Assembly: GCF_003001995.1 (NCBI RefSeq)
Contig: NZ_PVNB01000028.1
Location: 1 to 46,301, forward strand
Direction of reading: 5' to 3'
Length of the DNA: 46,301 nt
DNA from: Orenia metallireducens
GTDB lineage: Bacteria > Bacillota > Halanaerobiia > Halobacteroidales > Halobacteroidaceae
The notes beneath the pieces are model-generated. The model saw nothing but the letters and a program-made list of their open reading frames with translations. It did not search any database and was not told the DNA's origin. Made by a program: the position numbers and the translations under genes. Below, one piece after another: positions 23,256 to 39,671 of the stretch (its first letter is position 1; every line of letters begins with the position of its first letter).

Positions 23256-24947
23256 TTAACCCTCAATTAAATAATACTCCTCCTTGCCCACAAAAATCAA
23301 CAAAGCCTTCTTCACCTTCTCCCTATCCTCAAAACTCTTACTCCTTGCATAATCCTCTAACTGCTTTAACCCCTCCGCTTTGACCTCATCTAGCTTATCT
23401 CTATCACTCTTCTTCAAATACTTCAGCTCAATAATCCATTCGTACTCCACATCTGGCATTCTTAAATCCTTCTCTAAGTAGATATCAATATAACCCTTCT
23501 CTACCTCTCTTTCACTGACTGGCTTGTACGCCTTACTATCAACAAGATAGGAAAATAATATTACCTTAATATACTTCTCATCGAAGTTCTGTAAATCTCG
23601 ATTCGATAACCTCTTTAAAACATTCTCACTTATATAGTCGATATAAGGCTTTATCTGACCATCATAAGCCAAATTTTCTATAGATTTTCTTAATTCGTTG
23701 GTACTTAATCTAATCTCAAACCTACTTTCTAAACTCTTCTCAATATATTCCCAAAAGATAGTCTTAACCACATAATTAGGTATCTTTAAAAAGAGTCTCA
23801 TCCTCTCTCGCCTATCTATTGTCAACAATCCCATATAAAATAAGAGTGAAACAAAGTATTCATCATCATACATCCTATCGAAAGAAAACTTAGTAACAAG
23901 ATCAGCTACTATACCTTCATTCAAGATAATCTCTTCTAAGACCCATCTATTCTCTTCATTGCTAACTAAGCGATTTAGCCTACCATAATCGGTCTTTACA
24001 TTCTCATCTATTAAATCCTCTGGATAAAAACCGGTCATCTGCCACTGATTAAAGAAATACAAGACCATATCTGGATTATAAACCCTCTTTTTCCCACGAT
24101 GATTAAATAAGTAACCATTATAATTATTCTTCAATTCAACTAAGGATAATTTGTCATCAATCATATTAAATTCACTTATAATTCTATTTACCTCATCTTC
24201 TGTAAAACCTAGCATCTCATTAAGTATAGGATTCATAGTCAAATTACTAGCTATATTAAAGCCACTAGTCAGATCATCAAGCATAATTGGAGAAATTCCA
24301 GTAATGAAGATTCTATCTATTACACTTTCAGTTCCTATCTTAACTGTCTCATAAAAATCTCTGACAAAACCAGTTGCTCTGATGATATTTTTATAAAATT
24401 TACTTTCACCCATAGCAATTATATCATTAGCAAAATGGTCATATTCATCAATTATTAAATAAACTTTTTGCTCTAACTTCTTTACTGCTGTGATAAAAAT
24501 ACTTAAAATAGCACCTATATCTTCAATATCCTTTATTCTAGCTTTAATTTCTAATCCATTATCAAAATATTTTTTATACCTATCTAAACAATCAAAAATC
24601 GCATCAATTAAACTTAATCTAAAGGAATTCTCTAATCTATCTTCATTATCTGTATTTAACCCTGAAAAATTTAACTTTAAAATAAGATAACTATTTCTTA
24701 ATTTAGTTGGATTTTGACCTATGTATAAATCACCAAATAGCTTCTCAAAATTATTCGTCTGGTTAATATCATAATAATGGCTTAAAGTAGATAAAAATAG
24801 ACTCTTGCCAAATCTTCTCGGTCTGATAAAAAAGAGATACTTAGCTGATAACTTCTCCAATTTCTCAATATAACTTGTCTTATCAATATATAAATAACCT
24901 TCTTCACGTAAGGCTCTAAAATCAGAAATTCCATAGGGTAGCTTCAC
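23256..24947 (-). CDS. AAA-ATPase-like protein with C-terminal PD-(D/E)XK nuclease-like domain
   Basis: 563 residues. The N-terminal AAA-ATPase_like domain opens LPYGISDFRALREEGYLYID with Walker A-type RPRRFGKSLFLSTLSHYYD and Walker B VYLIIDEYDHFAND. The C-terminal region has the nuclease-like pair YIDIYLEKD (Asp) and WIIELKYLK (ExK), as in the PDDEXK_9 (DUF1703) tail. These proteins are abundant, often multicopy in anaerobes; their function is not established and some authors link them to mobile or defence roles. Start set at GTG 24947, with GAGGTG 7 bases upstream; the GTG at 24956 lies inside that site. Single gene in the accessory region, next to a family B repeat. Confidence 0.85.
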   Translation of the reverse strand: MKLPYGISDFRALREEGYLYIDKTSYIEKLEKLSAKYLFFIRPRRFGKSLFLSTLSHYYDINQTNNFEKLFGDLYIGQNPTKLRNSYLILKLNFSGLNTDNEDRLENSFRLSLIDAIFDCLDRYKKYFDNGLEIKARIKDIEDIGAILSIFITAVKKLEQKVYLIIDEYDHFANDIIAMGESKFYKNIIRATGFVRDFYETVKIGTESVIDRIFITGISPIMLDDLTSGFNIASNLTMNPILNEMLGFTEDEVNRIISEFNMIDDKLSLVELKNNYNGYLFNHRGKKRVYNPDMVLYFFNQWQMTGFYPEDLIDENVKTDYGRLNRLVSNEENRWVLEEIILNEGIVADLVTKFSFDRMYDDEYFVSLLFYMGLLTIDRRERMRLFLKIPNYVVKTIFWEYIEKSLESRFEIRLSTNELRKSIENLAYDGQIKPYIDYISENVLKRLSNRDLQNFDEKYIKVILFSYLVDSKAYKPVSEREVEKGYIDIYLEKDLRMPDVEYEWIIELKYLKKSDRDKLDEVKAEGLKQLEDYARSKSFEDREKVKKALLIFVGKEEYYLIEG

Positions 24948-25006
24948 TATTATCACCTCAATTTTATTATATCCTAATTTTTATGGTATTAAAAGTTAAA
25001 ACCTGA

Positions 25007-26749: not shown

Positions 26750-26885
26750 TTTATTCACCCTCCTCTTAGTTTATTACATGTAATAGTAGTAACTATTATA
26801 ACTATTACATATCTTGATTATCATTTTACTCCTCTTTTAATGCCTTGTCAATTGTTTTTTATAAAATAAAATTTATAAAGCAAAA

Positions 26886-26930
26886 AATAAAGAGAGGATT
26901 CTACTAAAAACTGAGAATCCTCTCTTTATT
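26886..26930 (-). terminator. terminator of the YqiJ/flotillin/AAA+ operon
   Basis: A 17-bp stem (26886-26902 with 26914-26930) and 11-base loop. On the minus strand it is followed by TTTTTG within the A-rich plus-strand flank. It is ~120 bases past the stop of the giant ATPase gene. Confidence 0.85.
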
Positions 26931-27048
26931 CCTCTATTATTATCTGCTTTTTATCTTAAAAAACTGAAATAACTGTCTCATATTCTTCTCTATTATTAAT
27001 ACTTTTACAACAAAACAAATAAATTTACAGCTATTTCTCTTTAAAAAA

Positions 27049-30000
27049 TCAACTATTTTTCATACTACTCCCTATTAATTTCAAATTTTCTCCTATATTA
27101 TTCAATTCTCTTATCACTTCTATTATCCTTTGACCATCTTCTTCTGACTTCTTCTTCAAATAGATCTCCTTTATCTCTGTCCATCTTGTCTTTCTTTCTT
27201 CGCTCATTCTATCAGTAATTTCATAGAACTTCAATAAACTTGCTTCTGCTTCAGTTGCTAAAGTCTGAGCATCATTGTTATAGCTATTCTCTATTAGCCT
27301 ATCTATCTCACTATCATTCATAATGGGGACTACCTTTTCCACAATCTTATTCATATTTCTATAAGAGCCTTGGAGCTTAAAGGGGGGCTCTGTTCGATAT
27401 TCATCACTTTGGGAAGAGGAATAGATATACTCCATATTTACCTTTAATATCTCATCCCTTATCTTCAGACAGCTCTCTAAGACCTTTAAAGCCTCTTCTA
27501 TATCCTCTTCAGTATAGCTACCAGTTAAGTTAATATCACCTCTATCACCTGTAGCAATAGCTTGAATTAACTTATAGATATCCTCAGGATACTTCATATA
27601 TATCTTGTTCAAGTAACTATTTGAGGTAATAGCATTCTCTATATAGCTTAGCTTAAAGGCTTGCTCATTCTCCCTTAGCATATCTCCTAGATTATATACA
27701 TCGGCTCTATTTGCTAGCATATCAGGAATCTTAAACTTATCTCCACTCTCAGTATAAGGGTTTCCAGCCATTACTACAGCAACCTTCTTCCCTCTAAATT
27801 CATAGGTCTTACTAATTCCTTTATAGACACCTTCAATCTTTCTCTGTCCATCACATAAGGAGATAAACTTCTGCAAAAACTCTGGATTTGAATGCTGAAT
27901 ATCATCTAAATAAATCATCACATTATTGCCGATTTCAAAGGCTAAATTCAACTTTTTCAACTCTTCTCTAGCACTGGCATTCTCAGCCTCGGCTGGGTCA
28001 AGAGAAGTAACACCATGACCTATAGTTGGGCAATTTATCTTGACTAGCATCATACTCAATCGGTTGGCAATATACTCTATCAAAGTAGTCTTACCATAAC
28101 CAGGTGGAGATATCATCAACAACATCCCCATATTATCAGTTCTCTTGCTCTTTCCAGCTGTACCTATCTGTTTGGCTAAGTTATCTCCAATTAAAGGCAG
28201 ATAAACCTGGTCAATTAACTTACTTCTTACAAAGGAAGTCAATACCTTTGGTTGTAGTGATTTAAAATTAATCTGATTCTTGATAGCTTCAATCTTCTCA
28301 AGCTTTAATTTCTGAAACTCTTCATATTGAGGGATAATATTATCATTAAAATTATCTAGCTTATCAAAAAACTCTACAATATTTACCTTATATTGACCAT
28401 TCTCAATAGATTGATGAGTTCCTACTAACTTATCTATGGCTATCTCAGACTTTTTATTGATTATTCTCCGCTTAGCATAATCACCTAAGATTAAAATAGA
28501 TATCACTTCATAAAGATAATCATTAAACTCTAACTTCCTCTCATACAGATAAGATTTGACCCATTCATTGACTAAAATATATTTTCCTTCTAAATCATCC
28601 TTTAAATTCTCTAAAGACTTCTTAAAATCTCCTTTAGCCCCCATTGAGATAAGGAAGTTATTAAAATCTTCATATGCTTCTGCTGCTTCTGTACTTAATA
28701 CAAAGCTCTCATGCTGACTTATCTCTTTAGCAAGGTACTCAGCAACCTTAGTAAATTGATGGGACTCTATCCAACGATTCTTAGCTACAAAGGCTCCTAT
28801 CTTTTGAGCCAACGCTGGAATAAATCCCCCTACCAATCCCCGCTTAGAGTATTTTGCTATAAGATTGACAGTCCTTAATCTATTCTCTAGTTTTTCTTTT
28901 CTATCTTCGGCTAATTCACATTCCCAAAATAGATTTGCAATGGCTCTAACTTTGGGATTGTAGGAAGCCAACTCTAATTCTAGATAGGTATCGACCAAAG
29001 CACTTAATATCTTTGTTCCATCATGGTCATGGACACCTTTAGTATAATATTCTTTAGAATGGTTCTCTATATAATCCTTTATTACACTGCTTAAAGCCTT
29101 CTCATCTTTCTGATATAATTCTTCTAAAGAATTATCCTCTTGATATCCCTTGAAGATATTATAGGCCAAAAATTCTGCCCGATAGACATCATCATTTTCA
29201 GATATAACCTTCTGCTCCCAAACCTCTTTATATTTAGTAAACTCCTCTTCATTTACCTTCTCCCAAAAATCGGTACCCGAGATATGAAAATAAAATCCAT
29301 CTTCTTTTTTTAGCAGACTCAGTTCAGGCTTCTGACTATTGACTAGAAAATGATTATCTCCAAATTTGATAGTATTTTCATCTAAGAATAGTTCCTTTTT
29401 ATCCTTTAACTGCTTGATGCTAGACTCTTTCAAGGACTTCAACTTATTTTCAATATCATCAGCCTTGGTACTATCTCCAAGCTCTATTAACTGTTCTATA
29501 ATATCTCTGATCTTATCTACCATGGGACTAGTAGAAAGAAGTTCATTGATCGAGCTTACTTCTTCAAAAGACTTGACCATATTTTCTAAGCCTTTAAAGA
29601 TTCTCTTAGCAGCATTGCCCAAAGAGTCTATCTTTCTATTCTTCTTTTCTAATAGTTGCTGCTTTTTTGATTCAAATGTTGATATGATCTCTTCCCTTTT
29701 CTCTGTTAGCATTACTACAAAATTATCAAAATCAGAGAACTTACTCTCTAATTCATCAATTTGTACTATTATCTTAGACATATAGTCTTCGGTTTTTTCC
29801 ACAGTAGTAGATAGATCTAAATAGTTGGATACAGAATGAGTCAATAAATTTAGTTTAGAATAGAACTCAGACTCCTTCTCCTTAGCATTTAAATTATCTA
29901 TCTTGTTCTTCAACTTTGATTTACTTTGATTCAAATTAGAAAAAAGCAGAGAGATCTTATCAATTATTTCAGAGGTCTTAGTGGCATCTTCTATCTTCAA

Positions 30001-31917
30001 ACTATTTACTATATTGATTAAGAGCTCTAGTTCTTCTGATACCTTTATTATCTTCTCATTCAATTCTCTTCCATCAATAACTTTTTCAATATTGTTTAAT
30101 TGAAGCTCTATCTCTTCTACCGATTCTATATAGGGGTTTAAACTATCATCAGCTAATAAAAACTCTACACAATCCTCTGATAATTTATCATTCTTCTCCT
30201 TTACCTTTAAGGATAAAGCTTCAACCTTTTCTTCATCAATAAACTGTAAGTCCTTTAATCCAGCAATTTCTCCTCTTACTTTTCTTATTTTGGTCAAATA
30301 TTTTACAAAATCATTTATATTTTCAAAGGTATTGTAGCCAATTGCTTTGGCTATATCCTCTACTTTCTCTCTTACTTGCTCATATTGATTGGCTGTATTC
30401 TCTTTTATCTTCGTAACCTTATCAAACTCTTTAATTGCAATTGCCCCTGCTTCTTTAATCTTAAGCAAAGACTGTTTTAGATTAAAAGCTTCCTCTTTAT
30501 CTACCCAAAAATAATTATTTATAATCTTTTCTGCATCTCTTACTATATCTATATACAACCCATAGTAGCTATCATCTTTTTTAGATAAATTATAGAGAGA
30601 ATAACAGTCAGCCATCAATCTAACTATCTCTTTATTTCCTATATTATATAAAAATCCATCTTTATCCTCTTCCTTTGCCTTGACTATATCTTTAGCAAAG
30701 GAGGTCTGCCAAATTTGGATAGTATGATTTCTTTTAGGCTCTTGCCCTGCTTTAAAGATAACCATCTCTCCATTATCAAAATGGGAATAGCCATTACAGA
30801 TTATTGGAGTCTCAATCTCTTGATGAATGATATTATAATTATGAATATAATACTCACCTGTTACCTTATCAAAAAAGATATATTGATAGTCTTCACCATT
30901 GATTGAAGCTTTTTTATTCTGAAAAACTATATTCTGATAGTTTAGTTCAAACCTCTTAAAACCTCCTGATTGCAGGAAGATTCCATCAGGAAAGATTATT
31001 CCATGATCTTCTGGAAGTAATACTACCGATTTTCCGATAGAATCTATCCGTTGTACCTCTTTTGTCTTCTCATTGAAAACAATATATCTATAATTACCTT
31101 CTTGATAAGGCTTCATCTTAAGTAAGATAAGATTTCCTACTATAGCATAAAAGACATCAGCATCATCAAGCTTCTGATCCTTCTGCTCTACCTCTTCTGC
31201 ATAAATTCCTTCTCCAGAATTTGTATTGTCCTCTATCTTTAAAGTTAAGGTTCCACCAATAGTCTCTACAAATACACGATCTTCAATAGAAATATGGGGA
31301 TGAAGACCAGCAACCTGGTCTTCTCTTGTAGTCTCTTTCCATTCAATCTCTTGCTGGGTAGGATATGTAATTTCATGGCTGAACCTATTTCCTAAATATT
31401 CTATAGTACCATCTTCTTTTAGCAGCCATTTAAAGCTTTTAATATCATCTACCTTTTCCCCATTTTGAAAGACCATATAAATAAAATTATCTTTCTCATG
31501 AAATTTAGCAAAAAAGCTCTCTTTATAATATTGATATAGCTCTCTAAAATCACTTTTAAACTGCTTATCATCTAATAAAGAGTACTCCTCTCTAGCAAAT
31601 CTACTTCCATTATAAGTATATACAGAGAAGACATCACTTAATTTAGTTTCTGATTTTAATCCAAGATGTACATTATACCCTAATATAACCTTATTCCCTA
31701 CAGGAACTATATCCCTAGGTATACAGCTATTCTCTGTAACTATAGCTTCACTCTTCTTTAAAGTATTTTTAGTCTCCCCATAGATCTCAATTCTTTTTTG
31801 ATTCAATCTTTCTAACTTATCTTTCAACTCTGCTGAACTTTCTAGCAGCCTATTTTTAATAACATTATAGGTCGCAATACCTTCTTGTTTTTTCTCTTCT
31901 TTACTCTCTTTGCTCAT
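27049..31917 (-). CDS. giant AAA+ ATPase (DUF3686 / 'DNA repair ATPase' family)
   Basis: 1622 residues, soluble. Residues ~1-430 are beta-rich and resemble the DUF3686 region of proteins annotated as DNA repair ATPases. Residues ~440-860 are long coiled coils (for example LKSLKESSIKQLKDKKELF). A helical region with ILSALVDTYLELELASYNPK follows. The AAA+ module near residue 1270 has Walker A SPPGYGKTTLIEYIANRL, then Walker B VMIYLDDIQHSNPEF ~65 residues later and sensor-like VAVVMAGNPYTESGDKF. The name 'DNA repair' is historical; the constant neighbours (OB-fold membrane protein, flotillin) point instead to a membrane-associated remodelling ATPase. This is inference. Start set at ATG 31917 (AAGGGGATAGAT before it) rather than TTG 31935. 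It begins 10 bases after the flotillin stop, so is translationally coupled. Confidence 0.82.
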   Translation of the reverse strand: MSKESKEEKKQEGIATYNVIKNRLLESSAELKDKLERLNQKRIEIYGETKNTLKKSEAIVTENSCIPRDIVPVGNKVILGYNVHLGLKSETKLSDVFSVYTYNGSRFAREEYSLLDDKQFKSDFRELYQYYKESFFAKFHEKDNFIYMVFQNGEKVDDIKSFKWLLKEDGTIEYLGNRFSHEITYPTQQEIEWKETTREDQVAGLHPHISIEDRVFVETIGGTLTLKIEDNTNSGEGIYAEEVEQKDQKLDDADVFYAIVGNLILLKMKPYQEGNYRYIVFNEKTKEVQRIDSIGKSVVLLPEDHGIIFPDGIFLQSGGFKRFELNYQNIVFQNKKASINGEDYQYIFFDKVTGEYYIHNYNIIHQEIETPIICNGYSHFDNGEMVIFKAGQEPKRNHTIQIWQTSFAKDIVKAKEEDKDGFLYNIGNKEIVRLMADCYSLYNLSKKDDSYYGLYIDIVRDAEKIINNYFWVDKEEAFNLKQSLLKIKEAGAIAIKEFDKVTKIKENTANQYEQVREKVEDIAKAIGYNTFENINDFVKYLTKIRKVRGEIAGLKDLQFIDEEKVEALSLKVKEKNDKLSEDCVEFLLADDSLNPYIESVEEIELQLNNIEKVIDGRELNEKIIKVSEELELLINIVNSLKIEDATKTSEIIDKISLLFSNLNQSKSKLKNKIDNLNAKEKESEFYSKLNLLTHSVSNYLDLSTTVEKTEDYMSKIIVQIDELESKFSDFDNFVVMLTEKREEIISTFESKKQQLLEKKNRKIDSLGNAAKRIFKGLENMVKSFEEVSSINELLSTSPMVDKIRDIIEQLIELGDSTKADDIENKLKSLKESSIKQLKDKKELFLDENTIKFGDNHFLVNSQKPELSLLKKEDGFYFHISGTDFWEKVNEEEFTKYKEVWEQKVISENDDVYRAEFLAYNIFKGYQEDNSLEELYQKDEKALSSVIKDYIENHSKEYYTKGVHDHDGTKILSALVDTYLELELASYNPKVRAIANLFWECELAEDRKEKLENRLRTVNLIAKYSKRGLVGGFIPALAQKIGAFVAKNRWIESHQFTKVAEYLAKEISQHESFVLSTEAAEAYEDFNNFLISMGAKGDFKKSLENLKDDLEGKYILVNEWVKSYLYERKLEFNDYLYEVISILILGDYAKRRIINKKSEIAIDKLVGTHQSIENGQYKVNIVEFFDKLDNFNDNIIPQYEEFQKLKLEKIEAIKNQINFKSLQPKVLTSFVRSKLIDQVYLPLIGDNLAKQIGTAGKSKRTDNMGMLLMISPPGYGKTTLIEYIANRLSMMLVKINCPTIGHGVTSLDPAEAENASAREELKKLNLAFEIGNNVMIYLDDIQHSNPEFLQKFISLCDGQRKIEGVYKGISKTYEFRGKKVAVVMAGNPYTESGDKFKIPDMLANRADVYNLGDMLRENEQAFKLSYIENAITSNSYLNKIYMKYPEDIYKLIQAIATGDRGDINLTGSYTEEDIEEALKVLESCLKIRDEILKVNMEYIYSSSQSDEYRTEPPFKLQGSYRNMNKIVEKVVPIMNDSEIDRLIENSYNNDAQTLATEAEASLLKFYEITDRMSEERKTRWTEIKEIYLKKKSEEDGQRIIEVIRELNNIGENLKLIGSSMKNS

Positions 31918-31927
31918 ATCTATCCCC

Positions 31928-33994
31928 TTACCCAATTATCGATTTTATTGGATCATTCTCTACTCCAAGCTCTTTAGCTTTGTCCAAAATTCTACTAATA
32001 ACTGTATTTGGAGTACCATTAGAACTGTCCATATACTTCATTATAGCATTGGAAATTGTAAGGTTCTTGATAGCTTCAGAATCTACATTAAAGCTATCAA
32101 TTAAAGTCTTTAATTGCTTTTGGAAATTATCTATATCACCACTAAAAAATGTATCCTTTACATCTGTTAAAACATTAGAGTTGTTGACTAATCTATCAAC
32201 TTGCTTTCCAGTACTGATCGAATTTATTAGCTTATCAAAGAAGATAGAATCTCCACCAACAATATCAACATTAGCATTCTTCAAGCCATCTCTCATTATT
32301 TCTGCCTGTGCTCTGGCTATCTCGGCTTGAATGCTGATCTCTGCTAATTCTACCTCTTTATCTTTATTCAGCTTTAATTTAAACTCTTCATGCTCTTTTC
32401 CTACAGCATCTAATTTCTTCATTGCTTCTGCTTTCTTATTGATTCCTTCTGCCTCTGCTAATGCCTTCTCTCTAGTTACTTGAGCTTCTGATTCACCTTT
32501 AATCTTAATTGCTTTAGCTTCTGCTGCTGCTTGCATCTCTTCAACCTTAGCTTTTGAAGCACCGTCTGCTTCAAAGGCTTCTGCTTGTGCCTTCATTACT
32601 CTAGAGTCAGAGATTCCTTGTACAGAAGCTTCCTCAGCCTTGGCATCTGCCATGATCTTGATAGATTCAGCCTTTTTATGGGAGGTCTTTAATTCAGTAT
32701 CTGCCATGATAACCTCTTTCTCAGCTAATTCTTGAGCACTTCTCTTCTCTGCTTCCGCAAGTTTGATCTTATCAATTGCTTTAACCTCGGCATCACTTTC
32801 AGCCTTTGTAACACTTACCGTCTTCTCTCTATTAGCTTGAGCTATCTCTCTAGTATCTTTTATCTTCTCTTCCTCTTCAGCTACCGATTTCTCTACTATT
32901 ACCCTCTCTCTAACTACCTCTTGCATACTCTTCTTCTCTTTTTCTAAATCCTTCTCCTTGGCTATCTCCGCTAGTGAAACTATCTTTTCTCTCTCTGTTC
33001 TCTCTATCTCAGTTTCTTTTTGTGCTCTTTCTTGCTCTACAGACTCCGTTCCCTCTTTAGCTATTCTAGCAATAATAATCTGTCTATCTTTATTCTCTTC
33101 AGCAATTGAAATTTCTTCATCTGTCTTAATTCTTGTTCTTTCTGCCTTTAAGCGTTCTTCTTCCTCTACAATCTTTATCTGAGAATTTTCTCTTGATTTC
33201 AGATTAGCTATTTCTCTTTTTTGCTTCTCTTCTGCTTCAGCCTGTTGTCTTTGAAGCTCTAATACGGCTTCTCTAGCACTTACATCCTGTTTTACAATCG
33301 TTTTCTCTTTATTTCGTTTAACTTCATTGGCTCTGATTGCTTGCTCAGCAGTTAATTCAATAATCTTTTTAATACCTTCTGAGTCAAGTACATTATTCTC
33401 ATCTAAATTTGCTATATTTGTCTGTTCTAAATAATCAATCGCAGCATCATCTAAGACATAACCATTCAAGTCAGTTCCTATAACTTGAAGAATCTCTTCC
33501 TTGAAGGTATCTCTTTCAGTATAAAGCTGAGTAAACTCAAACTTCTTACCAACTGTCTTTAAAGCCTCAGAAAATTTAGCATCAAAAAACTCCATTAAAG
33601 TATTAGTATCAGAAGCTTTTTTAGTCCCCAAAGCTTTAGCTACCCTTAATACATCCTTTTCAGTATGATTTACCCTTACAAAAAAAGCAACCTTAATATC
33701 AGCTCTTAAATTATCCTTACATACTAAACCAGCCTTACCACTTCTTTCAATCTCTACTCTTTTAATCGATACATCCATCAATTCACAATGGTGTAAGATT
33801 GGAATAATCCAAGTCCCAGTAAAGGAGACCTTCGACCCTCCAATTCCATTCTTAACAATAGCAGTTCCTTGATCCACCTTCTTATAAAATAGTGTCAATA
33901 ATATAGGAAATCCTATAAATATAAGAAAAGCAACTCCTGCCACTACATACAATATCATTTCTAACATTCCCATATCCAAAATTCCAATTTCCAA
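31928..33994 (-). CDS. flotillin/SPFH-domain protein (YqiK-like)
   Basis: 688 residues. One N-terminal membrane segment (~10-36, MLEMILYVVAGVAFLIFIGF) is followed by the SPFH domain (~40-200: TWIIPILHHCELMDVSIKRVE, LRADIKVAFFVRVNHTEKDV). A very long Glu/Ala/Lys coiled coil (~210-560, many AEAKA and EAE motifs) and a C-terminal flotillin segment (QAEIARAQAEIMRDGLKNA and after) complete it. E. coli YqiK is ~553 residues, so the coiled coil is extended here. Flotillins organise membrane microdomains. Start is TTG 33994: AAGGAGG lies 8 bases upstream, while the nearest ATG (33973) is too far. It sits between the YqiJ-like gene and the AAA+ gene in one operon. Confidence 0.9.
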   Translation of the reverse strand: MEIGILDMGMLEMILYVVAGVAFLIFIGFPILLTLFYKKVDQGTAIVKNGIGGSKVSFTGTWIIPILHHCELMDVSIKRVEIERSGKAGLVCKDNLRADIKVAFFVRVNHTEKDVLRVAKALGTKKASDTNTLMEFFDAKFSEALKTVGKKFEFTQLYTERDTFKEEILQVIGTDLNGYVLDDAAIDYLEQTNIANLDENNVLDSEGIKKIIELTAEQAIRANEVKRNKEKTIVKQDVSAREAVLELQRQQAEAEEKQKREIANLKSRENSQIKIVEEEERLKAERTRIKTDEEISIAEENKDRQIIIARIAKEGTESVEQERAQKETEIERTEREKIVSLAEIAKEKDLEKEKKSMQEVVRERVIVEKSVAEEEEKIKDTREIAQANREKTVSVTKAESDAEVKAIDKIKLAEAEKRSAQELAEKEVIMADTELKTSHKKAESIKIMADAKAEEASVQGISDSRVMKAQAEAFEADGASKAKVEEMQAAAEAKAIKIKGESEAQVTREKALAEAEGINKKAEAMKKLDAVGKEHEEFKLKLNKDKEVELAEISIQAEIARAQAEIMRDGLKNANVDIVGGDSIFFDKLINSISTGKQVDRLVNNSNVLTDVKDTFFSGDIDNFQKQLKTLIDSFNVDSEAIKNLTISNAIMKYMDSSNGTPNTVISRILDKAKELGVENDPIKSIIG

Positions 33995-34105
33995 TTAATA
34001 TTCCTCCTTAAATTATCTTTTTATATAAAAGAAGCTTTATACTTCTTTATATACAATATTCTCATATATAGCTTATGTAAGTTTCTATAAACTTATAGTC
34101 GATAA

Positions 34106-34759
34106 CTATAGTTGCTCTCTTACAATATAAATATCTTTCTTATTATCTTTAGAGATTACAATTGCTCGACTTCCTCTTATAATACTCTCACCCAATGATT
34201 TTACATTTATTATAATAGGATAGTCATCGACTATAATCTCAGCTTGGGCAATATTTGCTGAACTTAAATTAGATTTTAAGATACAACTCTGTCCAATAAT
34301 TTCAATATCACTTCTATCTTCCATAGAACTAAAAAACTTCTTTAAAGGTTCTGTCAGCCCTTTAGTTATAAAAGCTGAGATTATACAGTTTAGTATAAAT
34401 GCTAAGAGCCCCCAAATAGATCTTGGAGAAATATTGCTATAATACAGCAACATACTCAAAACCCATAATAGAAGAAAGAAAATAGTCCCATAAATTATAA
34501 TAGGTACAGAACCAAGATTTAAAAATTTCAATATCCGCAGAAAGTAATATCTGATTGGACCAATCTCTAATCTTGGGTCTTCTGTCTCAACTCCACCATC
34601 AAAGTACATATTAGACGAGAAATCTATATCTAAGTCAAATTCAATAACATCAAAAGAAAAGATCCCCAATATTATTAAAACCCAGTAGCTCATTACCATA
34701 ATTAAAAAAGCTGTAGCTAAGATATTAATCCCAGTAAAAGCAAATTGAATATATTCCAT
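34106..34759 (-). CDS. YqiJ-like OB-fold membrane protein (NfeD relative)
   Basis: 217 residues. Membrane helices lie near 10-35 (GINILATAFLIMVMSYWVLI), 82-105 (SVPIIIYGTIFFLLLWVLSM) and 113-133 (IWGLLAFILNCIISAFITKG). The C-terminal ~65 residues form a small beta domain (IEIIGQSCILKSNLSSANIA, then SLGESIIRGSRAIVISKD) of the OB/NfeD type. In E. coli yqiJ precedes yqiK, and NfeD-type proteins are known partners of flotillins, so this is probably the membrane partner of the next gene. First gene of the operon; GAAAGGAGAG precedes the ATG. Confidence 0.82.
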   Translation of the reverse strand: MEYIQFAFTGINILATAFLIMVMSYWVLIILGIFSFDVIEFDLDIDFSSNMYFDGGVETEDPRLEIGPIRYYFLRILKFLNLGSVPIIIYGTIFFLLLWVLSMLLYYSNISPRSIWGLLAFILNCIISAFITKGLTEPLKKFFSSMEDRSDIEIIGQSCILKSNLSSANIAQAEIIVDDYPIIINVKSLGESIIRGSRAIVISKDNKKDIYIVREQL

Positions 34760-34985: not shown

Positions 34986-35053
34986 AATCTATCATGTAAA
35001 TTTTTAGATGTCAAGTGTTCTCTCTCTTTTTCAAAATAATTGACAGAGAGAAC
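34986..35053 (-). promoter_or_regulatory. promoter of the YqiJ/flotillin/AAA+ operon with adjoining inverted repeat
   Basis: Minus strand TTGACA (35014-35009), 17 bases, TAGATT (34991-34986). Two bases upstream of the -35 lies an inverted repeat, GTTCTCTCT (35017-35025) and AGAGAGAAC (35045-35053), separated by 19 bases. This is where an activator such as a response regulator would bind. The leader to the YqiJ-like ATG is ~220 bases. Confidence 0.7.
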
Positions 35054-35155: not shown

Positions 35156-35181
35156 AAACTGACTATTAAAATAGTCAGTTT
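35156..35181 (-). terminator. hairpin with minus-strand T-tract
   Basis: Stem AAACTGACTAT (35156-35166) with ATAGTCAGTTT (35171-35181) around TAAA, followed on the minus strand by TTTTATTTTG. It is a second terminator downstream of the ferredoxin-type gene or the end of a small unidentified transcript. Confidence 0.7.
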
Positions 35182-37641: not shown

Positions 37642-39621
37642 TTACAGTTTATCTCTCAATTCCTCTATCTCATCCCTTATTTGAGCTGCTAACTCAAATT
37701 CTAGATTTGCCGCTGCTTCCTCCATCTCTTCTTCTAAGTCAGCAATCTCTCTTAAGATTTCTGCCTCTGACATCTCCTCTAGCTCCTCTTCATCAACCTT
37801 GTACTCTTCTCTTGTTTCAGCAATCATATCTACAGGACGGAGTACCTCTCTAACCTTTTTTCTAATAGTCTGTGGTATAATTCCATGCTCCTGATTAAAC
37901 TCCATCTGCAATTTGCGACGACGATTGGTCTCACCAATGGCTTCTTTCATCGAATCGGTCATCTTGTCAGCATACATGATTACCTTACCATTGGCATTAC
38001 GAGCAGCTCGTCCAATTGTCTGGATTAAGGAACGATTAGAGCGTAGAAACCCTTCTTTATCGGCATCGAGGATTGCTACCAAAGATACTTCAGGAATATC
38101 CAAGCCCTCCCTTAATAAGTTGATTCCCACTAGAACATCAAATTTACCTAATCTTAGATCTCTAATAATTTCTAACCTTTCAATAGTATCTATATCAGAA
38201 TGAAGGTATCTGACCTTAATCCCTGCTCGCTCCAGATAAGCAGTCAAATCCTCTGCCATCTTCTTGGTCAAGGTAGTTACCAAAATCCTTTCACCAATAT
38301 CAATTACCTGATGAATCTCATCTAACAAATTATCAATCTGATTCTTGATAGGTCTGACTTCAACCTCTGGGTCTATCAATCCAGTTGGGCGAACAATCTG
38401 CTCTACAACCTGTTGACTATGGTCTAATTCATAAGCAGCTGGTGTAGCAGAAATATAGATAGCCTGATTGATTAAGCTCTCAAATTCATCAAACTGCAAA
38501 GGTCTATTATCCAAAGCTGAAGGCAATCTAAAACCATACTCTACCAGCTTCTCCTTTCTAGAGCGGTCACCAGCATACATTCCTCCAATTTGGGGAATTG
38601 TCTTATGGGATTCATCGATCACTAATAGAAAATCATCAGGAAAATAGTCAATCAAGGTCTGGGGTCGACTCCCCTCTGCTCTTCCTTCTAAAAGGCGGGA
38701 ATAGTTCTCTATCCCTGAACAGAAACCAACCTCAGCCAACATCTCCATATCATATTTGGTCCTCTCTTCTAATCTTTGAGCTTCTAATAACTTACCTTGA
38801 CTTCTTAAATAATCAAGTCTCCCTTCCAACTCCTCTTCAATCTCCTTTAAAGCCCGTTCTATCTTATCCTCTGGTGTAACAAAGTGGCTAGCTGGATAAA
38901 TAGTCAATTCATCTAATGTACCTAAAATCTCTCCAGTTAGAGTATTTATCTCTCTAATTTGATCTATCTCATCACCAAATAGCTCTACTCGATATGCCTT
39001 ATCTTCATAAGCAGGAATTATCTCAATTACATCACCATTGACTCTAAAGGTTCCCCGAGCAAAGTCAACTTGATTTCTCTTATACTGAATACCTATTAGC
39101 TCTCTGATAATATCACTACGATCCTTAATCATCCCTCGCTCTAAATGGCAGGTCAAATCTAAGTAATCTGCTGGATTACCTAATCCATAGATACAAGATA
39201 CACTAGCTACGATAATCACATCTTCTCGTTCAAATAAAGCACTGGTTGCTGCCAACCTCATCTTATCAACCTCTTCATTGATAGAAGAATCCTTCTCTAT
39301 GTAAGTATCGGTCTGAGGTACATAGGCCTCTGGCTGATAATAATCATAATAACTGACAAAATAACCAACCTTATTCTCAGGAAAGAACTCAATAAACTCG
39401 CTACATAATTGAGCAGCCAAAGTCTTATTATGAGCAATTACTAAGGTAGGTTTCTGTACCTTCTCAATTACATTTGCTACAGTAAAAGTCTTACCCGATC
39501 CAGTTACCCCTAATAAGGTCTGTTCCTTCATCCCAGCTTGTATCCCTTTAGTCAAGCTTTCAATCGCTGCTGGCTGATCCCCTTTTGGAGAGTAGTCAGA
39601 GACTAATTTAAATTTAGACAT
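37642..39621 (-). CDS. uvrB: UvrABC excision nuclease subunit B
   Basis: 659 residues. UvrB verifies DNA damage and loads UvrC in nucleotide excision repair. Visible: [11 protein letters not shown] near the N-terminus, Walker [17 protein letters not shown], the damage-binding beta-hairpin [24 protein letters not shown]-box-like [18 protein letters not shown], helicase motifs V-VI ([39 protein letters not shown]) and a C-terminal UVR motif. Start is ATG 39621, with GAGGTG 6 bases upstream (GTG 39630 lies in that site). No uvrA follows in the window. It is bracketed by repeat elements. Confidence 0.97.
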
Positions 39622-39671
39622 GATATTCACCTCATCTTTTCATAATAATTAATCTATAATAAGATAACACA

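What the first reader, a model, noticed from the sequence alone, without database searches (positions are those of the whole stretch)
27049..34759. Three-gene YqiJ-flotillin-giant AAA+ ATPase operon
A membrane OB-fold protein, a flotillin with an extended coiled coil and a ~1620-residue AAA+ ATPase are tightly coupled (10-base gap between the last two) under one promoter. YqiJ-YqiK pairing is known from E. coli, but the third gene carries a 'DNA repair' family name with little support. The set suggests a membrane microdomain scaffold plus a remodelling ATPase, perhaps a membrane-stress or phage-defence device.
Basis: partly seen in the sequence, partly recalled or inferred. Interest (0 to 1): 0.65.

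Follow-up and report, generated by a model that had tools for sequence, protein, structure and literature searches.

The report
Flotillin operon with giant AAA+ ATPase
This is a real three-gene unit in a salt-loving bacterium that probably builds a flotillin cage on the inner membrane together with a large ATP-driven remodelling machine; the gene association is already in the literature as part of the extended phage-shock (membrane-stress) network, so this is a good but known example, and the ATPase's database label 'DNA repair' looks wrong.

Summary
On the minus strand lie a YqiJ-like 3-TM protein (217 aa), a flotillin (688 aa) and a 1622-aa AAA+ ATPase, with a 10-base gap before the ATPase and terminators flanking the set. 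The ATPase is not an obvious DNA-repair enzyme. Its DUF3686 region models as a beta-propeller, followed by coiled coil (DUF7902) and a C-terminal AAA+ core with invariant ATPase motifs.

Of 39 ATPase loci from five bacterial phyla, 36 have the flotillin directly upstream. The other three (related Bacteroidota) carry it elsewhere in a CesT/Tir-PspA-YqiJ-flotillin set. In 395 Bacteroidota genomes, DUF3686 and this flotillin subfamily occur in exactly the same 10.

The association is published: Ravi et al. 2024 (PMC11237479) describe band-7/flotillin + YqiJ/YuaF + 'novel AAA+ ATPase fused to coiled-coil and beta-propeller', with or without CesT/Tir-PspA. The window is the abbreviated form; its genome has PspA at another locus. 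Best reading: an envelope-stress scaffold with a remodelling ATPase, by analogy to HflK/C-FtsH; client unknown. Phage defence lacks sequence support, although the likely P. aeruginosa equivalent (PA3728-PA3732) is induced by phage infection.

The parts
34106..34759 (-). YqiJ/YuaF (NfeD2)-like membrane protein, 217 aa: about three TM segments and a C-terminal domain predicted to be an NfeD-type OB fold
   Evidence: ORF; hydropathy; profile vs E. coli YqiJ prob 93, E 3.7e-7; 7 of 19 family members hit PF21001 YqiJ_N, 2 hit PF01957 NfeD
31928..33994 (-). Flotillin (SPFH2/YqiK-type), 688 aa, TTG start
   Evidence: ORF; one N-terminal TM-like segment; profile vs E. coli YqiK E 3e-39 over 400 columns
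33365..33883 (-). SPFH/Band-7 part of the flotillin (approximate)
   Evidence: Alignment with YqiK residues 23-200; conserved columns in A3
32270..33364 (-). Extended charged/Ala-rich coiled-coil part of the flotillin (approximate)
   Evidence: Composition by block: almost no Pro/Gly and a high share of charged residues and Ala
27049..31917 (-). Giant AAA+ ATPase, 1622 aa (ATG start; 1628 aa from the TTG at 31935)
30508..31830 (-). DUF3686 region of the ATPase; models as a beta-propeller (about 30700-31770) preceded by an N-terminal helix
   Evidence: Pfam 1.3e-171; AlphaFold2 pLDDT 82 with an all-beta core; top structural matches are propellers, best Z 8.8
29899..30147 (-). DUF7902 region of the ATPase, all helical, within the long coiled-coil stretch
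   Evidence: Pfam 5e-23; model
27760..28122 (-). AAA+ core: Walker A SPPGYGKTT, Walker B DD, sensor 1 AGNPYTESG, arginine-finger candidate MLANRAD
   Evidence: Pfam AAA 2.6e-6; motif residues invariant or nearly so in 39 homologues; structural neighbours midasin, NorQ, CbbQ, ClpB
26871..26945 (-). Terminator-like hairpin plus U tract downstream of the ATPase
   Evidence: RNA fold -27.9 kcal/mol, z -6.2
35156..35181 (-). Terminator-like hairpin upstream of the operon that separates it from the Fer4 gene
34986..35014 (-). Candidate sigma-70-like promoter TTGACA-17-TAGATT with TG extension
   Evidence: consensus match only, scan is at chance level

Best explanation
The operon encodes an envelope-stress machine. 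YqiJ and the flotillin assemble into a cage-like SPFH scaffold on the cytoplasmic face of the inner membrane. The AAA+ ATPase, whose propeller and coiled coil act as the docking and sensing arm and whose C-terminal AAA+ ring is the motor, is a dedicated partner of that scaffold. It uses ATP to remodel what the scaffold gathers, most likely flotillin or PspA-type membrane assemblies or damaged membrane-protein complexes. Shown here: the genes, their fixed partnership, the domain layout and the intact ATPase motifs. Inferred: cage formation (from solved flotillin and HflK/C structures), physical contact, the stress role and the client.
For: 36 of 39 ATPase loci have the flotillin directly upstream on the same strand. 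The other three have it elsewhere in the genome, within XRE, CesT/Tir-PspA-YqiJ-flotillin sets. In 395 Bacteroidota genomes DUF3686 and flotillin scores of 721 bits or more fall in the same 10; all other flotillin-like hits score 336 bits or less and lack DUF3686. Flotillin and ATPase distances correlate (Mantel r 0.91, 0 of 5000 permutations). The Bacteroidota operons also carry CesT/Tir and PspA directly upstream (Pfam). The window's genome has PspA in a DUF4178-PspA-DUF4247-spermine synthase-K channel cluster. In the host family 4 of 4 genomes with the ATPase have PspA and 0 of 4 without it do. The same gene set was linked to PspA and membrane assembly by Ravi et al. (PMC11237479). SPFH cages enclosing a AAA+ protease are known (HflK/C-FtsH, cited in PMC11260169). 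The likely P. aeruginosa equivalent responds to osmotic shock (PA3731, PMC2587700) and phage infection (PA3728-PA3732, PMC12041424).
Against: No experiment on this ATPase family was found in the papers searched. G041 and G107 carry the operon but no detected PspA (one fragmented assembly, one metagenome assembly), so PspA may not be obligatory. YqiJ is weak or missing next to two Streptomyces copies. Tree-mirroring is expected for co-inherited genes in general. The homology of PA3728 was not tested directly.
Confidence: 0.62

Rival explanations
1. A phage-defence system: the scaffold senses membrane disturbance by a phage and the ATPase triggers arrest or blocks entry.
For: Sporadic distribution (10 of 395 Bacteroidota, 2 of 398 in the window's phylum), presence on plasmids, and induction of PA3728-PA3732 in phage-infected P. 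aeruginosa (PMC12041424).
Against: No PADLOC match for any of the three proteins beyond a chance-level AAA hit. No toxin-like or nuclease effector in the unit. Neighbours in relatives are PspA, CesT/Tir, TerB and polyamine genes. Phage induction is what a membrane-stress response would show anyway.
Confidence: 0.12
2. A flotillin-coupled protein quality-control device: the ATPase unfolds or matures client proteins held by the flotillin, as MoxR-type ATPases do for enzyme complexes.
For: AAA+ core is structurally near NorQ, CbbQ, midasin and ClpB; the sensor-1/arginine region AGNPYTESG...IPDMLANRAD resembles the MoxR pattern (sequence; the pattern is from memory, a lead only). S. aureus FloA-NfeD stabilises unfolded proteins (PMC11222466).
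Against: No VWA partner gene, which MoxR systems usually have, was seen next to the operon; the client is unknown. It overlaps with the best explanation and cannot be separated from it by sequence.
Confidence: 0.2
3. A DNA-repair ATPase, as the Pfam and RefSeq name says, next to a flotillin operon by accident; uvrB lies nearby in the window.
For: Name of PF12458 and of RefSeq products; weak RuvB similarity of the P-loop; uvrB at 37642-39630.
Against: The partner conserved across phyla is flotillin, not repair genes; DUF3686 models as a propeller; the weak similarity is limited to the common P-loop and is as strong to p97.
Confidence: 0.03

Closest known systems
Band-7/flotillin + YqiJ/YuaF + AAA+ (coiled coil, beta-propeller) operons of the extended PSP network (Ravi et al. 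2024, PMC11237479)
   Same: Same three proteins, same domain layout; the paper explicitly describes abbreviated operons without CesT/Tir-PspA, as in the window
   Different: Nothing essential.
E. coli YqiJ-YqiK and B. subtilis YuaF-FloT (NfeD2-SPFH2)
   Same: Homologous membrane protein and flotillin pair
   Different: No AAA+ partner next to yqiJK; YqiK is 553 aa against 688; flotillins of sampled genomes without the ATPase score far lower against the family profile
HflK/C-FtsH
   Same: SPFH assembly paired with an AAA+ enzyme at the inner membrane
   Different: FtsH is a membrane-anchored protease; this ATPase has no TM-like segment and no protease domain match
P. aeruginosa bac cluster PA3732-PA3729 plus PA3728
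   Same: Gene content by annotation: YjfI/CesT-Tir, PspA-like, short NfeD, SPFH (PaFlo3), ATPase
   Different: Carries CesT/Tir and PspA in the cluster; homology of PA3728 to this ATPase not tested here
MoxR-type AAA+ ATPases (NorQ, CbbQ, midasin relatives)
   Same: Similar AAA+ core by structure comparison
   Different: Size, propeller and coiled-coil arms, flotillin partner, no VWA partner seen

Membership tests
[quoted passage not shown]
Band-7/flotillin-YqiJ-AAA+ operon of the PSP network (PMC11237479) | 3-TM YqiJ/YuaF-type protein in the operon | tested here: met
   (prob 93), hydropathy
Band-7/flotillin-YqiJ-AAA+ operon of the PSP network (PMC11237479) | AAA+ ATPase with coiled coil and beta-propeller N-terminal to the AAA+ domain | tested here: met
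Band-7/flotillin-YqiJ-AAA+ operon of the PSP network (PMC11237479) | CesT/Tir-PspA dyad in the operon (full form only; the paper allows abbreviated operons without it) | tested here: not met
   Absent next to the window operon; present in Bacteroidota relatives; PspA elsewhere in the window's genome. So: member of the abbreviated form, not of the full form
MoxR-type AAA+ | AAA+ core closest to MoxR/NorQ/CbbQ by fold | tested here: inconclusive
   Top structural rows mix midasin, dynein, ClpB and NorQ with near-tied Z of about 9-12
MoxR-type AAA+ | Partner protein with VWA domain | tested here: inconclusive
   None among Pfam-scanned neighbours; the rest of the genome was not searched for one
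DNA-repair ATPase | DNA-binding or repair function | not testable with these tools
   Needs an assay; genomic context speaks against it
Known anti-phage defence system | Match to PADLOC models | tested here: not met
   (best E 0.09, P-loop only)

The most novel reading that the evidence does not exclude
The DUF3686 ATPase is a bacterial counterpart of Vps4: an obligate, dedicated motor that disassembles or recycles flotillin cages or PspA (ESCRT-III-like) polymers at the inner membrane, giving these flotillins an ATP-driven assembly-disassembly cycle.
Probability: 0.25. Interest if true: 0.75.

Novelty: new member of a known kind. Interest (0 to 1): 0.38.

Why it matters
If the partnership is physical, this is a second SPFH-AAA+ machine beside HflK/C-FtsH, spread across at least five phyla, and it would give bacterial flotillins an ATP-driven cycle. 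It also shows that the widely copied name 'DNA repair ATPase' for DUF3686 proteins is probably wrong.

Tried and rejected
PADLOC search for defence models: nothing. ATPase in 50,697 phage records: none; flotillin: one short partial match. Solved structures by sequence: no hit for the flotillin or YqiJ profiles; only P-loop hits for the AAA+ part and short coiled-coil matches for the N-terminal part. Pfam on the single window flotillin and YqiJ gave nothing, so identity rests on family profiles. 'Orphan' ATPases in three Bacteroidota genomes first looked like counter-examples; the flotillin set was found elsewhere in each. The word DUF3686 occurs in no paper of the library. Structure search does not settle the AAA+ clade, and a clade that is not listed is not excluded. 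Longest-first ORF picking missed flotillins in GC-rich loci (L028, L030, L046), which were recovered by tblastn.

Full report
What is there. The minus strand carries three genes: a 217-aa membrane protein (34759-34106), a 688-aa flotillin (33994-31928) and a 1622-aa AAA+ ATPase (31917-27049), the last two 10 bases apart. Terminator-like hairpins lie before and after the set, which makes a three-gene transcription unit likely; the promoter itself is only a consensus match. The genome (G000, 4.1 Mb) is a relative of Halanaerobacter jeridensis (75% ATPase identity).

Identity of the parts. The ATPase matches DUF3686 (1.3e-171), DUF7902 (5e-23) and AAA (2.6e-6). The flotillin and the membrane protein give no Pfam hit alone, but their family profiles match E. 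coli YqiK (E 3e-39) and YqiJ (prob 93, E 3.7e-7), and individual relatives hit Band_7, Flot, YqiJ_N and NfeD.

Structure of the ATPase. An AlphaFold2 model of residues 14-700 (pLDDT 82) has an N-terminal helix, an all-beta region and then long helices. The beta region matches propellers (WD40, YncE and others) across its full span with best Z 8.8, modest but consistent. A model of residues 690-1628 (pLDDT 81) shows coiled coil, a middle domain and an AAA+ core whose neighbours are midasin, dynein, ClpB/ClpA, NorQ and CbbQ, with near-tied scores. Walker A, Walker B (DD), sensor 1 and the arginine-finger candidate are invariant or nearly so in 39 homologues, so an active ATPase is expected. The 'DNA repair' label rests on the family name; nothing in the fold or the context supports it.

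Is the partnership real? Among 39 distinct ATPase loci from Halanaerobiales and other Firmicutes, Bacteroidota, Proteobacteria, Actinobacteria and Deinococcota, 36 have the flotillin directly upstream on the same strand, usually within 0.3 kb. The three exceptions are related Bacteroidota genomes in which the same flotillin sits elsewhere, in a set XRE regulator, CesT/Tir, PspA, YqiJ, flotillin; in one of the three the ATPase contig ends just upstream, so its own neighbourhood is only partly seen. In an even sample of 395 Bacteroidota genomes, DUF3686 is found in 10 and flotillins scoring 721 bits or more against the family profile are found in exactly the same 10. Twelve other genomes have only distant flotillin-like proteins (336 bits or less) and no DUF3686. 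Flotillin and ATPase divergence run in parallel (Mantel r 0.91), though shared ancestry contributes to that. Genomes are related, so these are not independent events, but the split loci show that the pairing survives loss of linkage.

Link to the phage-shock network. Most Bacteroidota operons also hold CesT/Tir and PspA directly upstream. In the window they are missing, but the genome has PspA in a separate DUF4178-PspA-DUF4247-spermine synthase-potassium channel cluster, of a type also described in PMC11237479. In the host family the four genomes with the ATPase have PspA and four without it do not; two other carriers have no detected PspA. The plasmid pQBR103 copy lies in one run with YjfI, PspA and glutathionylspermidine synthase genes.

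What is known. Ravi et al. 2024 (PMC11237479) describe this association: flotillin with TM, band-7 and coiled coil; [quoted passage not shown] YqiJ/YuaF; with CesT/Tir-PspA or in abbreviated operons, 'in some cases' with the ATPase. The window is an abbreviated operon of this kind. The P. aeruginosa bac cluster appears to be a full form by annotation (PMC10948618, PMC13086221, PMC8190622); PA3731 rises on osmotic shock (PMC2587700) and PA3728-PA3732 rise in phage-infected cells (PMC12041424).

Mechanism. The best reading is a flotillin-YqiJ scaffold at the inner membrane with a dedicated remodelling ATPase that serves envelope-stress tolerance. SPFH cages and the enclosure of a AAA+ enzyme are known from flotillin and HflK/C-FtsH structures (PMC11260169). 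Contact, client and phenotype are inferred. A defence role is possible but has no sequence support.

Verdict. The additions here are the strict co-occurrence, the split loci, the propeller assignment of DUF3686 and the case against the 'DNA repair' name.

Noticed in passing
L072, L073, L074 (G104, G106, G105) versus L004-L006: In three related Bacteroidota genomes the ATPase lies away from the XRE/CesT-Tir/PspA/YqiJ/flotillin set, yet all parts are kept; a natural test of functional linkage.
   Followed up: yes
L007-L015, L047-L054, upstream of CesT/Tir: A divergently transcribed gene of about 210-250 aa, an HTH (XRE-type) regulator where scanned (L009:883-1602), sits next to the CesT/Tir gene in most Bacteroidota copies; a likely regulator of the operon.
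   Followed up: partly
L008:11022-11990, L010:10738-11151, L015:11046-11441: TerB-family genes directly downstream of the ATPase in several Bacteroidota, and a PLD-like gene near the regulator (L008:327-1013); a tie to Ter-type stress systems.
   Followed up: partly
L024:7301-7735 and L028:6720-7565: In two Streptomyces plasmids the YqiJ-like gene is shortened (no OB domain) or absent, with a methyltransferase gene upstream of the flotillin instead.
   Followed up: partly
L059:7460-11995 (G000:C9): DUF4178-PspA-DUF4247-spermine synthase-potassium channel cluster in the window's genome, a second PSP-type cluster.
   Followed up: partly
L015:5347-5964: A 205-aa protein without Pfam match inserted between flotillin and ATPase.
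   Followed up: no
23256-24956: AAA-ATPase_like / PDDEXK_9 protein (566 aa) near the operon.
   Followed up: no
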